From NCBI RefSeq assembly GCF_001742225.1, contig NZ_CP017075.1, positions 3,378,001 to 3,442,000 on the forward strand: 64,000 nucleotides of DNA, given 5' to 3'. Every line of letters starts with the position of its first letter. Within the stretch, counting starts at the first letter, position 1. This document shows positions 44,874 through 62,970 of this stretch, piece by piece. The position numbers were made by a program, and so were the translations under genes. The notes beneath the pieces were generated by a model. The model had not been told where the DNA came from. It saw nothing but the letters and a program-made list of their open reading frames with translations, and did not search any database. This DNA comes from Novosphingobium resinovorum (lineage in GTDB: Bacteria > Pseudomonadota > Alphaproteobacteria > Sphingomonadales > Sphingomonadaceae).

Positions 44874-44893
44874 CATCGTCCCAAGGTACAATT
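44874..44893 (+). promoter_or_regulatory. PQQ-regulon motif copy before the aldehyde dehydrogenase
   Basis: CATCGTCCCAAGGTACAATT lies about 70-90 bases before the ALDH ATG. It matches the motif at 53781, 56577 and 62951 (core TCCCAAGGTnCAAT). Inferred operator or promoter element of the alcohol-oxidation genes. Confidence 0.65.
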
Positions 44894-44961
44894 GGCCTGC
44901 CGCGCCCATCGGCTCACATTGCCTGTCGAAACCCCACGGGGGTCAGGTTCGGAGATTTGGG

Positions 44962-46482
44962 ATGCTGGAACAGGCGATTGGCAAATTCGCGGGCGAGTCG
45001 CTCATCCGCGAGAAGTTCGACAACTTCATCGGCGGCAAGTGGGTGGCCCCGGTCAAGGGGCAGTACTTCGACAATATCTCGCCGGTGACCGGGCAGGTCG
45101 TGTGCCAGGTGGCGCGCGGGACGGCCGAGGACATCGAACTGGCGCTCGACGCCGCGCACGCCGCCAAGGACGCCTGGGGCAAGGCCTCGCCCACCGAGCG
45201 CGCGAACACCTTGCTCAAGGTCGCCGACCGCCTCGAAGCCAACCTCGACAAGCTGGCGCTGGCCGAGACGATCGACAACGGCAAGCCCATCCGCGAGACG
45301 ACCGCCGCCGACATCCCGCTGGCGATCGACCACTTCCGCTACTTCGCCTCGTGCCTGCGCGCGCAGGAAGGCTCGATCGCCGAGATCGACCACGACACCA
45401 TCGCCTATCACTTCCATGAACCGCTGGGCGTCGTCGGCCAGATCATCCCGTGGAACTTCCCGATCCTGATGGCCGCGTGGAAGCTGGCCCCGGCGCTGGC
45501 AGCGGGCAACTGCGTGGTGCTCAAGCCCGCCGAGCAGACGCCGATGTCGATCCTGGTGCTGGCCGAGATCGTCGCCGATCTGCTGCCGCCGGGCGTGCTC
45601 AACATCGTGAACGGCTTCGGCATCGAGGCGGGCAAGCCGCTGGCGCAGAACAAGCGCATCGCCAAGATCGCCTTCACCGGCGAGACGACGACCGGCCGCC
45701 TGATCATGCAGTATGCGTCGGAAAACCTGATCCCCTGCACGCTGGAGCTGGGCGGCAAGAGCCCGAACATCTTCTTCGCCGACGTGATGGACCACGACGA
45801 CGACTTCCTCGACAAGGCGCTCGAAGGCTTCACCATGTTCGCGCTCAACCAGGGCGAGGTCTGCACCTGCCCGAGCCGTGCGCTGGTCCACGAATCGATC
45901 TATGATGCCTTCATCGAGAAGGCGATCGCGCGGGTCGAGGCGATCAAGCTGGGCAGCCCGCTGGACGCCGCGACAATGATCGGCGCGCAGGCATCGAACG
46001 ACCAGCTGGAGAAGATTCTCAGCTACATCCAGATCGGCAAGGACGAAGGCGCCAAGGTGCTGACCGGCGGTGAGCGCGCCTCGCATGACGGCGAGCTGGC
46101 GCAGGGCTACTACGTGCAGCCGACCGTGCTGGAAGGCCACAACAAGATGCGCGTGTTCCAGGAAGAGATCTTCGGCCCGGTGCTTGCCGTCACCAAGTTC
46201 TCGACCGACGAGGAGGCGCTGGAGATTGCCAACGACACGCTCTACGGCCTCGGCGCCGGGGTGTGGACGCGCGACGGAACCCGCGCCTATCGCATTGGCC
46301 GGGGCATTCAGGCGGGCCGCGTGTGGACCAACTGCTACCACGCCTACCCCGCCCACGCGGCGTTCGGCGGCTACAAGCAGTCCGGCATCGGTCGTGAGAA
46401 CCACAAGATGATGCTCGATCACTACCAGCAGACCAAGAACCTGCTCGTCAGCTACAGCCCGAAGAAGCTCGGCTTCTTCTGA
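44962..46482 (+). CDS. exaC: NAD-dependent aldehyde dehydrogenase, ExaC-like
   Basis: A 506-residue ALDH of the ExaC/AcoD (acetaldehyde) type, which removes the aldehyde produced by PQQ-alcohol dehydrogenases. Catalytic Cys301 ([10 protein letters not shown]), Glu262 (L-E-L-G-G-K-S-P) and Lys188 (V-L-K-P-A-E) are present, and the N-terminal P-W-N-F-P-I-L-M holds the NAD-binding Asn. The C-terminal [13 protein letters not shown] is standard. Cytoplasmic. A regulon motif lies upstream and a terminator-like hairpin downstream, just before a DUF779 gene. Confidence 0.92.
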
Positions 46483-46552
46483 TCGTGGCGGGTTCGCCAA
46501 GAGCTCTCAACCCGGCGTCCCGCCACCATAACGGCGCCGGATACCTCGAAAC

Positions 46553-46584
46553 GGCGGATGGCCCCCACGCCATCCGCCGCTTTT
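46553..46584 (+). terminator. Terminator between ALDH and DUF779 genes
   Basis: GGCGGATGGC (46553-46562) pairs with GCCATCCGCC (46569-46578), followed by GCTTTT. It ends only 8 bases before the DUF779 ATG, so it may work as a partial terminator or attenuator. Confidence 0.8.
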
Positions 46585-46591
46585 CGGCGTC

Positions 46592-61031: not shown

Positions 61032-61175
61032 GGCCCACCGCGTCCGGCTAGGCAGCAAGCTGCCAAGCCTCCCAGCCCTCCCGCACGCGGGAGGGCTGAC
61101 GCGCTTCACCCCCTCCCGCTTGCGGGAGGGGCAGCGAGACTTGGCCGCAGGCCCTAGTCGCAGCGGGGTGGGCCC
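61032..61175. repeat. Intergenic palindromic repeat, family C (long form)
   Basis: GGCCCACC at the left, GGGGTGGGCC at the right, with an AGGCAGCAAGCTGCC segment (also at 33603) and two inverted CCCTCCCGC/GCGGGAGGG units inside. It separates the receptor from the convergent metallo-hydrolase. Confidence 0.8.
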
Positions 61176-61191
61176 GAGCCCGAGACTGAGC

Positions 61192-62130
61192 CTACAACCT
61201 CGGCAGCAACCGCGCCTCAAGCCCCGGATAGAGATGCGAGACGCTGCGCTGCAATTCGTAGCGCGCCGCCTTCAGCCCGGCGAACCGCTCGGGGATCGGC
61301 AGTTCCCCCGCCTCGGTCATGTCGAGCCCGTCGGCCACCGCCTGCGTCAGCGTGGCCTCCAGCCAGTCCAGCCAATCCCGCGTCTGCGCGATCGCGCCGC
61401 CGTCCCGGTCCAGCGGCCCGTGCCCCGGCAACAGCAGCCCATGCTGCACCGCCGTCAGCCGATCGAGCGCCGCCCGCCACTTCACCAGATCCGCATGCGG
61501 GGTCGAGGGCGCGCGGTCGTGGAACACGAGGTCGCCCGCCAGCAGCGTCCCCGTCGCCTCGTCGAGCAGCGCGAGATCGCCCGCCGAATGCCCCTGCATC
61601 GCGAAGAGCCGGAACCTGCGCCCGCCGAACAGGGCCTCCCCCTCCGCCACGTCGCCGAGCGGCAGGACGACATGGGTGCCCTTCATCCAGTCCGACAGCA
61701 GGCGGTACATGGCATCGGAGAACCCCTCGCCGTCGCGCTCCAGATCGGCGCGGGTGGCGGGCAGGGCGTGGACGATGGCGGGATCGAAGGCCGCCGCCCC
61801 CAGCGCATGATCGGGGTGCAGATGGCTGACGTAGACCCGCCCCACCGCCTTGCCCGTCACCGCCTGCGCCAGCGCGCCAAGCGCCTTGCCATGCTCCAGC
61901 GAGACGCCCGGATCGAACAGCACCGCGCCCGCGTCGGTGGCGATGATGGCGCTGTTGGCGATCATGCCGCCGTTGTCGAACAGGATCGGCGCATCGGCGC
62001 CGCGCACCATCCACACGCCCTCGGCGACGGGCTCGGCCTTGGGAGCATAGGCCCCGGCGAAGGTCTCGGCGCGGGCGGCGACGGGCAGCGCCAGCGCGGC
62101 GCCGATCAGGCTGCGGCGGGTGAGGTTCAC
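61192..62130 (-). CDS. Quinoprotein relay system zinc metallo-hydrolase
   Basis: A 312-residue metallo-beta-lactamase-fold protein. A signal peptide with R-R-S-L-I-G-A-A-L-A-L and a His cluster His103, His105, Asp107, His108 (S-H-L-H-P-D-H) give the metal site, with later metal ligands in Q-G-H-S-A-G-D and P-G-H-G-P. The family sits with PQQ-alcohol dehydrogenases and a SoxYZ-like carrier; SoxH is the sulfur-oxidation relative. The activity is unknown. It overlaps the SoxYZ-like gene by 4 bases. Confidence 0.9.
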   Translation of the reverse strand: MNLTRRSLIGAALALPVAARAETFAGAYAPKAEPVAEGVWMVRGADAPILFDNGGMIANSAIIATDAGAVLFDPGVSLEHGKALGALAQAVTGKAVGRVYVSHLHPDHALGAAAFDPAIVHALPATRADLERDGEGFSDAMYRLLSDWMKGTHVVLPLGDVAEGEALFGGRRFRLFAMQGHSAGDLALLDEATGTLLAGDLVFHDRAPSTPHADLVKWRAALDRLTAVQHGLLLPGHGPLDRDGGAIAQTRDWLDWLEATLTQAVADGLDMTEAGELPIPERFAGLKAARYELQRSVSHLYPGLEARLLPRL

Positions 62131-62915
62131 CTGGCGGCCAGCGCCGCGCTGCGCGGGGTGACCGTGCCGTCGAATTCCAGCCCCGAACTATCGCGCGCGG
62201 CGATCGAGAGCGGCCCCTTCGCATCGTCGACGATGAAGGTGAAGGCCGGGTCTTCGGCCACCGCTCCGAAGACCTGCAGGTCGGCGAGCGGGGTTCCGGC
62301 CGAGGAGGTCACGGTCACCCGCTCGATGTTGTAGGCGGCGATGTTCTCGACGAGGCCGGTGTCCATCGGGTGCCGTAACGTCACCCTGAGGCGCGTTTGA
62401 GTGCCGCTGAGTGCCCATGCCGCGCCGTGCATTTCGCCGAGGTGATTGGCCCAGTCGCCCTTGACCCGGCTGACCGGCGGGGCCGAGCAGCCGCCGCCCG
62501 CCGCATCGATCCAGTTCCCCGAGACGTGCCACACCCCGTCCGTCGTGAGCACTGCCGCGCGCACCGGGGTGCGCTGGTCGAGCTTGATCCGCGTCGCCAG
62601 AAACGGCGCGGCGGCGCGGGGGGCATAGTCCACCGCGACGGGAATCGGGTTGAGGTCGGCGAAGATCAGGATGCGCTTCACGTCGGGAAGGGCGCGCGCA
62701 TCGACGGTGACGGGAAAGACGCGCTGGTTCTCGGCGATCTCGGGGATTTCGACCTTCACGGCAGAGTCGAAGCGCACCGTGGCGTCGCCGAACAGACGCT
62801 CGGCGTGATACTCCCACATCGGCGATTTCAGCGGGTCCGCAGGCAGCGCGAAAGCGGCCGGGACCGGCGCGGCGAGGGTGGCGATGAGGGCCAGCAGGAT
62901 CTTCTTGCGGATCAT
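62127..62915 (-). CDS. Quinoprotein dehydrogenase-associated SoxYZ-like carrier
   Basis: A 262-residue secreted protein with a signal peptide (A-P-V-P-A-A-F-A) and two Ig-like domains, the first like SoxY (residues 30-150), the second like SoxZ (155-262). The conserved Cys143 lies in an A-A-G-G-G-C-S-A-P linker, at the place where SoxY has its sulfur-carrying G-G-C-G end. Here it is internal because the two proteins are fused. It may carry an acyl or sulfur group for a relay from the PQQ enzyme, but no one knows. ATG at 62915, overlap with the hydrolase downstream. Confidence 0.9.
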   Translation of the reverse strand: MIRKKILLALIATLAAPVPAAFALPADPLKSPMWEYHAERLFGDATVRFDSAVKVEIPEIAENQRVFPVTVDARALPDVKRILIFADLNPIPVAVDYAPRAAAPFLATRIKLDQRTPVRAAVLTTDGVWHVSGNWIDAAGGGCSAPPVSRVKGDWANHLGEMHGAAWALSGTQTRLRVTLRHPMDTGLVENIAAYNIERVTVTSSAGTPLADLQVFGAVAEDPAFTFIVDDAKGPLSIAARDSSGLEFDGTVTPRSAALAAR

Positions 62916-62950
62916 ACCAAGGGCCAATGTAGGCCGGGCCTCGCTCGCGT

Positions 62951-62970
62951 CATATTGGACCTTGGGAGGA
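62951..62970 (-). promoter_or_regulatory. PQQ-regulon motif before the SoxYZ-like operon
   Basis: On the minus strand TCCTCCCAAGGTCCAATATG, about 35-55 bases before the SoxYZ-like ATG. On the plus strand its GGGAGGAG part lies right before the CXXCW gene ATG at 62974 and so doubles as that gene's ribosome site. The AAGGTnCAAT part is not needed for that, so the motif is probably regulatory. Confidence 0.65.

What the first reader, a model, noticed from the sequence alone, without database searches (positions are those of the whole stretch)
44874..62970. A shared upstream motif marks the PQQ alcohol-oxidation regulon
TCCTCCCAAGGTnCAAT or a close form occurs at 44874-44893 (before the aldehyde dehydrogenase), 53781-53800 (minus, before the alcohol dehydrogenase), 56577-56612 (before the porin, as two copies 15 bases apart) and 62951-62970 (minus, before the SoxYZ-like operon). 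A weaker copy is at 55408-55430. I found no such copy before genes outside the island. The match includes an exact TCCTCCCAAGGT at two sites 9 kb apart. The natural candidate to bind it is the LuxR-type regulator at 51187.
Basis: partly seen in the sequence, partly recalled or inferred. Interest (0 to 1): 0.85.

Follow-up and report, generated by a model that had tools for sequence, protein, structure and literature searches.

The report
Shared switch of an alcohol-oxidation gene island
A short DNA sequence in front of the alcohol-oxidation genes of this Novosphingobium-like bacterium is a conserved control site, most likely the landing place of the island's own AgmR-type regulator, and it closely resembles the acetate-gene switch already known in Pseudomonas.

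Summary
The motif is real and conserved. All reported copies are present, plus one missed at 62912-62928 (+). A matrix from the seven window copies alone finds the box before 54 of 63 orthologous promoters of six genes in 12 related genomes, against 4 of 76 for eight other island genes. A model built only from relatives has five window sites as its five best hits in the 6.9-Mb genome. One spacing to a -10-like element puts the box at about -51 to -35. It matches in register the ACTU box of Pseudomonas CrbR/ErdR, mapped at -52 to -36 (PMC5715377). By tree and synteny the 51187 regulator is the AgmR/ErbR (PedR1) ortholog; Pseudomonas loci carry a related dyad. Best reading: an AgmR-type activator binds beside the -35 and switches on one island. 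New detail: the SoxYZ/CXXCW promoters carry facing boxes with starts 57-59 bp apart in 11 of 11 genomes (two weak), each covering the other's predicted start. Binding is not shown. pqqB and pqqC are absent.

The parts
44876..44892 (+). box before ExaC (TCGTCCCAAGGTACAAT); -10-like CACATT at 44915-44920
   Evidence: best genome hit of the relatives-only model, E 6.6e-6
53782..53798 (-). box before the PQQ alcohol dehydrogenase (TCCTCCCAAGGTGCAAT); -10-like TAGGCT at 53754-53759
   Evidence: box found before 11 of 12 orthologs; relatives-only model E 0.032
56579..56595 (+). first porin box (TCCTCCCAAAGTACCAC)
   Evidence: tandem boxes 14-15 bp apart in 8 of 13 porin promoters
56594..56610 (+). 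second porin box (ACTGCCCAAAGTCCAAT); -10-like CATGGT at 56633-56638
   Evidence: relatives-only model E 6.8e-4
62954..62970 (-). box facing the SoxYZ-like gene (TCCTCCCAAGGTCCAAT); -10-like TACATT at 62926-62931
   Evidence: E 9.7e-4
   Evidence: E 0.0033; facing pair with starts 58 bp apart
55409..55425 (+). weak, near-palindromic box in the PedF/beta-propeller intergenic region (CAAGACCAAGGTCGCAT)
55395..55411 (-). possible degenerate PedF box (TTGTACCATTGGCCAAC)
   Evidence: score 5.7 only; relatives have a PedF box, 11 of 11
51187..51867 (-). NarL/LuxR-type response regulator, AgmR/ErbR (PedR1) ortholog; proposed box-binding activator
   Evidence: Response_reg + GerE; best NCBIfam ErdR, 161.5 bits, below cut-off 390; tree
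48334..50538 (+). NahK/ErcS'-like hybrid histidine kinase, possible partner
   Evidence: NF041831 454.7 bits of 1500 cut-off; NF041832 386.6 of 400; both under cut-off
47075..48256 (+). NosP-like FIST protein
   Evidence: NF041558 401 bits, under its 450 cut-off
44962..46482 (+). acetaldehyde dehydrogenase ExaC
   Evidence: NF050026 951 bits, over cut-off
51929..53674 (-). PQQ-dependent alcohol dehydrogenase (start taken at the ATG at 53674)
   Evidence: TIGR03075 781 bits, over cut-off
54861..55304 (-). cytochrome c-550 PedF
   Evidence: TIGR04494, over cut-off
55460..56449 (+). PQQ-catabolism beta-propeller protein
   Evidence: TIGR03866, over cut-off
62127..62915 (-). quinoprotein-associated SoxYZ-like carrier
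   Evidence: TIGR04557, over cut-off
62974..63528 (+). PQQ-dependent catabolism CXXCW (rhodanese-like) protein
   Evidence: TIGR03865, over cut-off

Best explanation
The motif is the binding site of the island's own AgmR/ErbR-type response regulator (51187-51867). The box is an imperfect dyad around ACCwwGGT (family form close to ATTGnACCAAGGTnCAAT; the TCCTCCC left half of this genome is a degenerate arm). A phosphorylated dimer centred near -43 touches the -35 end of a sigma-70 promoter whose -35 is weak, and recruits RNA polymerase. It switches on, in one step, ExaC, the PQQ-ADH, the porin operon and the divergent SoxYZ/CXXCW operons, and in relatives the PedF-PedG operon. The regulator gene lies 61 bp behind the PQQ-ADH, so it probably feeds its own expression. 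Between SoxYZ and CXXCW two facing boxes are set so that each covers part of the other promoter's -10 and its predicted start; I infer that the two promoters cannot fire at the same time. Shown: sequence, conservation, fixed spacing, genome-wide specificity, regulator ancestry. Inferred: binding, activation, phosphorylation by the NahK-like kinase, feedback, mutual exclusion.
For: Window-only matrix: 54 of 63 target promoters against 4 of 76 other promoters in 12 relatives; 60 column-shuffled matrices give a mean of 4.2 and a maximum of 12 of 63. Relatives-only model: the five best hits in G000 are island sites, and 20 genomes without the regulator have nothing below E 0.06. Model R1, which was trained on island sites, run on 13 genomes: 45 of 45 hits with E<=0.05 lie within 15 kb of the regulator. 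Fixed spacing to a -10 (A at +40 in 38 of 57 sites, T at +44 in 38 of 57). Same register and strand as ACTU: column correlation 0.67 against at most 0.46 at any other offset or strand; 53 of 54 island sites reach p<1e-3 under the ACTU matrix. ACTU is needed for CrbR activation (PMC5715377, section 16), and purified ErdR shifts three target promoters but not acsA-I fragments, which lack the motif (PMC8402216 passages). Tree: island regulators group with NosP-linked, Pseudomonas-type AgmR (99/91; one search gives the Pseudomonas names). The recognition-helix stretch TVKAHVSAI is shared with Pseudomonas AgmR.
Against: No binding, expression or start-site data. G140 has the regulator with NosP, kinase and ExaC but no detectable box (0 hits). 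ExaC boxes are missed in 5 of 12 relatives; in G020 and G155 a box lies there but faces the other way, and in G011 and G027 a weak reversed one. The PedF/beta-propeller site of this genome is weak. Island regulator and Pseudomonas-type AgmR share only 41-44% identity (L181, L185, L194), the outer half-sites differ (ATTG against TACT), and the recognition helix is nearly as similar in CrbR-side proteins (L173: TIKAHVSAI; L208: TVKAHVTAI), so it does not tell the two subfamilies apart. Regulator and box share an island, so co-occurrence cannot separate it from another island-linked binder. In Pseudomonas, AgmR is thought to be driven by YiaY/PP_2683, not clearly by NahK (PMC12997753 section 16, part 1).
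Confidence: 0.85

Rival explanations
1. The box is bound by another regulator (for example a CrbR/ErdR-type protein encoded elsewhere, or an unlinked factor), and the 51187 regulator has other targets.
For: ACTU was defined for CrbR/ErdR, a related subfamily. G140 keeps the regulator but has no box. The recognition helix is nearly the same in both subfamilies.
Against: In G000 the next best match to the 51187 protein is only 33% identical, so no close second member is seen. The regulator lies inside the boxed island in 12 of the 13 genomes that hold it at 58% identity or more, and 20 genomes without it show no hit below E 0.06.
Confidence: 0.1
2. The motif with its -10 is the promoter of an alternative sigma factor rather than an activator site.
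For: Fixed spacing between motif and -10.
Against: The motif centre lies about 34 bp from the -10 centre, too far for a -35 element. A sigma-70-like TTG start at the motif end sits 17 bp before the -10. The dyad form, the tandem porin copies 14-15 bp apart in 8 of 13 genomes and the match to ACTU fit an activator.
Confidence: 0.03
3. The copies are chance or repeat-borne similarity in a GC-rich genome, for example spread with the REP-like elements near three of them.
For: REP-like inverted pairs lie 4 to 42 bp upstream of the boxes at 44876, 53798 and 56579. The loose pattern hits the genome about as often as the reversed control.
Against: Held-out tests in both directions. The two sites at 62912/62970 have no REP beside them. 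The boxes lie outside the REP pairs.
Confidence: 0.01

Closest known systems
ACTU motif of CrbR/ErdR (Pseudomonas fluorescens acs; PMC5715377)
   Same: 17-bp imperfect dyad in the same register and strand; same place relative to the start (-52 to -36 there, about -51 to -35 predicted here); regulator of the same NarL-type family.
   Different: Target genes are PQQ alcohol oxidation, not acetate use; outer arm ATTG/CAAT; the host is an alphaproteobacterium; the regulator is the AgmR-side relative, with NCBIfam ErdR score 161.5 of cut-off 390.
AgmR/ErbR/PedR1 regulon of Pseudomonas (ped/exa cluster; review PMC12997753)
   Same: Orthologous regulator by tree; shared NosP-NahK, PQQ-ADH, PedF, beta-propeller, SoxYZ and CXXCW genes; related dyad TACTACCWWGGTAGTA before PedF in 41 of 45 Pseudomonas-type loci.
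   Different: Here no pqqB or pqqC, a regulon confined to one island, ExaC inside it, facing boxes at SoxYZ/CXXCW. I saw no AgmR box in the review (passages; regulator section part 1 of 2) or in the listings of searches; subscription papers on AgmR are not held.

Membership tests
ACTU-type box (CrbR/ErdR family site) | 17-bp imperfect inverted repeat with the ACTU sequence preferences | tested here: met
   register 0, same strand, r 0.67; 6 of 6 ACTU sites at p<5e-4 under the island matrix
ACTU-type box (CrbR/ErdR family site) | placed directly before a sigma-70 promoter, about -52 to -36 | tested here: met
   fixed spacing to a -10-like element (A at +40 in 38 of 57, T at +44 in 38 of 57); by prediction only, starts not mapped
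ACTU-type box (CrbR/ErdR family site) | required for activation by the cognate regulator | not testable with these tools
   needs mutation and reporter work
ErdR (NCBIfam NF041830) | score over the curated cut-off of 390 bits | tested here: not met
   161.5 bits; the regulator in L208, from a genome whose AgmR is Pseudomonas-like, scores 448.5
AgmR/ErbR/PedR1 regulator | response regulator grouping with NosP-NahK-linked Pseudomonas regulators | tested here: met
   99/91; L194 is 89-97% identical to the 80 loci kept, 78 of them titled Pseudomonas or Stutzerimonas
AgmR/ErbR/PedR1 regulator | controls PQQ-ADH genes | not testable with these tools
   inferred from boxes
AgmR/ErbR/PedR1 regulon | includes the pqq biosynthesis operon | tested here: not met
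   pqqB and pqqC not found in G000; in G011 pqqA lies in the island with a weak candidate box

The most novel reading that the evidence does not exclude
One ancient AgmR/ErdR DNA code, an ACCwwGGT dyad at about -43, has run alcohol and acetate oxidation promoters since before Alpha- and Gammaproteobacteria split, drifting only in its outer half-sites. In sphingomonads it drives a one-island regulon kept in bacteria that seem unable to make PQQ, and at SoxYZ/CXXCW it has become an interlocked promoter pair in which one regulator dimer turns on one gene while sitting on the start of the other.
Probability: 0.4. Interest if true: 0.65.

Novelty: new member of a known kind. Interest (0 to 1): 0.5.

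Why it matters
AgmR (ErbR, PedR1) is a central activator of PQQ alcohol oxidation in Pseudomonas (review PMC12997753), but I found no box for it in the papers I could search. This work gives a specific, testable box in two classes of bacteria and ties it to the ACTU box. It lets the regulon be read from sequence: one island in 12 of 13 sphingomonad genomes. It also points to a conserved facing-box promoter that can be tested for mutual exclusion.

Tried and rejected
Loose genome pattern (3 mismatches): 14 hits against 10 control, not usable alone. The two 2-mismatch places outside the island, L004 and L005, were read and rejected as targets. Off-island hits of model R1: G178:C41 lies beside a Na/H exchanger gene and G000:C1:3442146 inside a DUF3422 frame; five others (L134-L137, L140) were looked at by ORF position only (two L137 frames also by Pfam), the rest not at all. 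G078:C1:1840963, next to a cytochrome c gene at the island edge, is left open. The question whether pqq genes carry the box fell away because the host has no pqqB or pqqC; of 13 genomes only G011 and G140 have them, and the first 1,600 bases of G140's pqqB locus L142 show no box.

Distant clusters: I chose 40 stretches from the matches of 147 of 398 Pseudomonadota genomes. With the mixed ACTU/island matrix (P<0.05; L200 is itself a sphingomonad island): PedF 4 of 4, ExaC 2 of 3, PQQADH 2 of 5, CXXCW 2 of 5, PedG 1 of 3, Porin 1 of 9, and none of NosP 14, HK 14, RR 15, Bprop 8, MBL 2, SoxYZ 2. In the 80 Pseudomonas-type loci (P<0.05): PedF 35 of 45, NosP 43 of 62, CXXCW 9 of 71, RR 4 of 80, PQQADH 2 of 55, Porin 1 of 48, MBL 1 of 30; Bprop, SoxYZ, PedG, ExaC none. 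The dyad was chosen after seeing those sites, so its counts are not held out, and the PedF and PQQ-ADH counts partly share one divergent site. NosP has no dyad although scores it.

Rows left out: the site table keeps only six target genes with region P<0.04 and enough flank (57 rows); A1 keeps those with score over 13 (54 rows). The tree holds 55 of 58 candidate regulators; L190, L192 and L207 fell out by the script's rule against stops in the aligned stretch. Kinase lengths there are frames from the first possible start; three island kinases (G011, G155, L200) also read over 1000 aa. Paper search on Novosphingobium PQQ regulation gave nothing relevant in the listing.
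Full report
What was checked. The porin promoter holds two copies whose starts lie 15 bp apart, and the weak copy lies at 55409-55425. In the window each box points towards the gene it precedes and ends about 34 to 107 bp before the start codon.

Is it confined to the island? The whole genome (6.92 Mb, 5 contigs) has 14 matches with up to 3 mismatches, against 10 for the reversed pattern, so a loose pattern is noisy. The three places with 0 or 1 mismatch are all in the island. Two tests with separate training and test data settle it. 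First, a matrix from the seven window copies alone was scanned over 350 bp upstream of orthologs in 12 family genomes. It finds a box (region P<0.05) before 54 of 63 promoters: CXXCW 8 of 8, SoxYZ 7 of 8, PedF 11 of 11, PQQ-ADH 11 of 12, Porin 10 of 12, ExaC 7 of 12. Before eight other genes of the same islands it finds 4 of 76: RR 1 of 12, HK 1 of 12, TBDR 2 of 7, none for MBL 8, Cb561 7, PedG 11, NosP 12, U46558 7; the beta-propeller gene, counted apart, has 1 of 12. Fisher p = 4e-24; 60 shuffled matrices average 4.2 of 63. The genes are related by descent, so the p-value overstates independence, and PedF joined the target list after I saw relatives. Second, a sequence model from 49 relatives' sites (R2) has as its five best hits in this genome five island boxes, E 6.6e-6 to 0.032; the next has E 0.86. 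In 20 genomes without the regulator nothing falls below E 0.06; four hits lie between 0.06 and 0.1. In G420, which has the regulator and was not in the training set, two hits (E 0.0025, 0.046) lie within 5 kb of it.

Anatomy of the site. Over 57 sites the consensus is TnGkmCCAARGTnCAATkk: C5, G10 and A15 are invariant; A7, A8, A14 and T16 are in at least 55 of 57. Apart from bases touching the box, the strongest other signal is at +40 (A, 38 of 57) and +43/+44 (T, 31 and 38 of 57), a -10-like TAnnTT, which the matrix did not select for. A sigma-70-like -35 start (T, T/G, G/T) begins at the last base of the box, 17 bp before the -10. The box therefore lies at about -51 to -35. This is a prediction; no start is mapped.

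What it resembles. PMC5715377 (abstract, passages and section 16 read) describes the ACTU box of CrbR in Pseudomonas fluorescens: an imperfect inverted repeat at -52 to -36 directly before the RpoD promoter, needed for CrbR activation; Table 4 lists forms such as TACTACCAAAGTCTAAT. The island matrix and a matrix of six Table 4 sites (six of the 23 rows: those with q<0.25, one of two identical ones, plus PFLU0110) agree at offset 0 on the same strand (column correlation 0.67; at most 0.46 at any other offset or strand); 6 of 6 ACTU sites score at p<5e-4 under the island matrix and 53 of 54 island sites at p<1e-3 under the ACTU matrix. PMC8402216 (passages): purified ErdR shifts three promoters but not the acsA-I fragments, where the motif is not found.

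The regulator. 51187-51867 has a receiver and a GerE domain; its best NCBIfam model is ErdR, but far under the cut-off (161.5 of 390). In a tree of 55 relatives the 14 island regulators form one group (100/99), joined (99/91) by nine regulators of which eight lie beside NosP and the ninth (L194) near CXXCW and the beta-propeller gene. A larger group of 27 (99/95) adds three more NosP-linked and one other. All 18 regulators labelled as lying beside a long kinase (1029-1336 aa, CrbS-like length) without NosP, and the one regulator over the ErdR cut-off (L208), fall outside it (the tree is midpoint-rooted). The Pseudomonas identity of the nine comes: L194 is 89-97% identical to the 80 loci kept (of 547), 78 of them titled Pseudomonas or Stutzerimonas. 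With the NosP/NahK neighbours this makes it the AgmR/ErbR (PedR1) ortholog. The recognition-helix stretch TVKAHVSAI is the same in island proteins and Pseudomonas-type AgmR, and nearly the same on the CrbR side, which fits a shared box but does not choose between the two.

Pseudomonas side. Among 80 loci the dyad TACTACCWWGGTAGTA (up to 3 mismatches) lies before PedF in 41 of 45, PQQ-ADH in 28 of 55, CXXCW in 30 of 71, RR in 3 of 80, and in none before NosP 62, Porin 48, Bprop 63, MBL 30, SoxYZ 30, PedG 23 and ExaC 5; 20 shuffled dyads, run on PedF, PQQ-ADH and NosP only, give at most 1. The pattern was chosen after seeing the sites, and PedF/PQQ-ADH partly count one shared site.

Facing boxes. 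Between SoxYZ and CXXCW the two boxes face each other with starts 58 bp apart in the window. The same pair is seen in 11 of 11 genomes where both genes were found, offset 57-59 bp. Nine pairs pass the score cut-off of 8 on both sides. In G020 and G420 one box of the pair is weaker (5.5 and 6.7), and in G020 that place scores better read on the other strand (15.6). Given the inferred positions, each promoter's -10 shares bases with the other's box and its start falls near the centre of that box. I infer mutual exclusion.

Presence and absence. The regulator (E<=1e-40) is in 17 of 199 family genomes, in 13 of them at 58% identity or more. Close PQQ-ADH orthologs (at least 76%) are in 12 of 199, all with the regulator. 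Model R1 finds 45 hits with E<=0.05 in 13 genomes, all within 15 kb of the regulator; the first hits elsewhere are on G174:C20 (E 0.059; a contig that holds that genome's SoxYZ, MBL, CXXCW and TBDR) and G178:C41 (E 0.099). G140 has the regulator but no box.

Host. pqqB and pqqC were not found in this genome nor in 10 of the 12 relatives searched (present in G011 and G140), so the PQQ-ADH probably uses imported PQQ; the TonB receptor at 58757 is a candidate importer, with only weak similarity to the PqqU model (63 bits of 1200; a siderophore-receptor model scores 75.5 of 223.5). In G011, pqqA (by eye) lies inside the island with a weak box-like sequence in front.

Verdict. It is an AgmR-type, ACTU-like activator box: a new member of a known kind, with one structural detail (facing boxes) that may be new; I did not search the literature for that detail.

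Noticed in passing
whole genome G000 (window C1:3378001-3442000): No pqqB or pqqC found although the island encodes a PQQ-ADH; the same in 10 of 12 relatives. Suggests dependence on imported PQQ.
   Followed up: partly
58757-61021 (+): TonB-dependent receptor in the island with weak PqqU similarity, under cut-off: candidate PQQ or lanthanide importer.
   Followed up: no
44801-44871, 53841-53910, 56465-56559: REP-like inverted pairs of CTTCGACARGCTCAG lie 4 to 42 bp upstream of three boxes; 15 matches (up to 1 mismatch) in the window against 0.02 expected. They suggest how little upstream DNA these promoters need.
   Followed up: partly
56579-56610 (+): Tandem boxes 14-15 bp apart in 8 of 13 porin promoters, three in G111.
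   Followed up: partly
L082:6846-6862 and L082:6007-6023 (G011): Weak box-like sequences before pqqA and before a small gene that reads like a cupredoxin (both by eye), inside an island that carries pqq genes.
   Followed up: partly
L185, L192, L207 and many Pseudomonas loci, upstream of NosP: CAGTACCCAAGTAGCAT-like box with a -10-like TAGAAT or TACACT 22 bp on (P 0.07-0.10 in those three, P<0.05 in 43 of 62 Pseudomonas-type loci), perhaps another AgmR or ErdR target.
   Followed up: no
L138:4964 (G078:C1:1840963, -): Box hit (E 0.043) next to a cytochrome c gene at the island edge.
   Followed up: no
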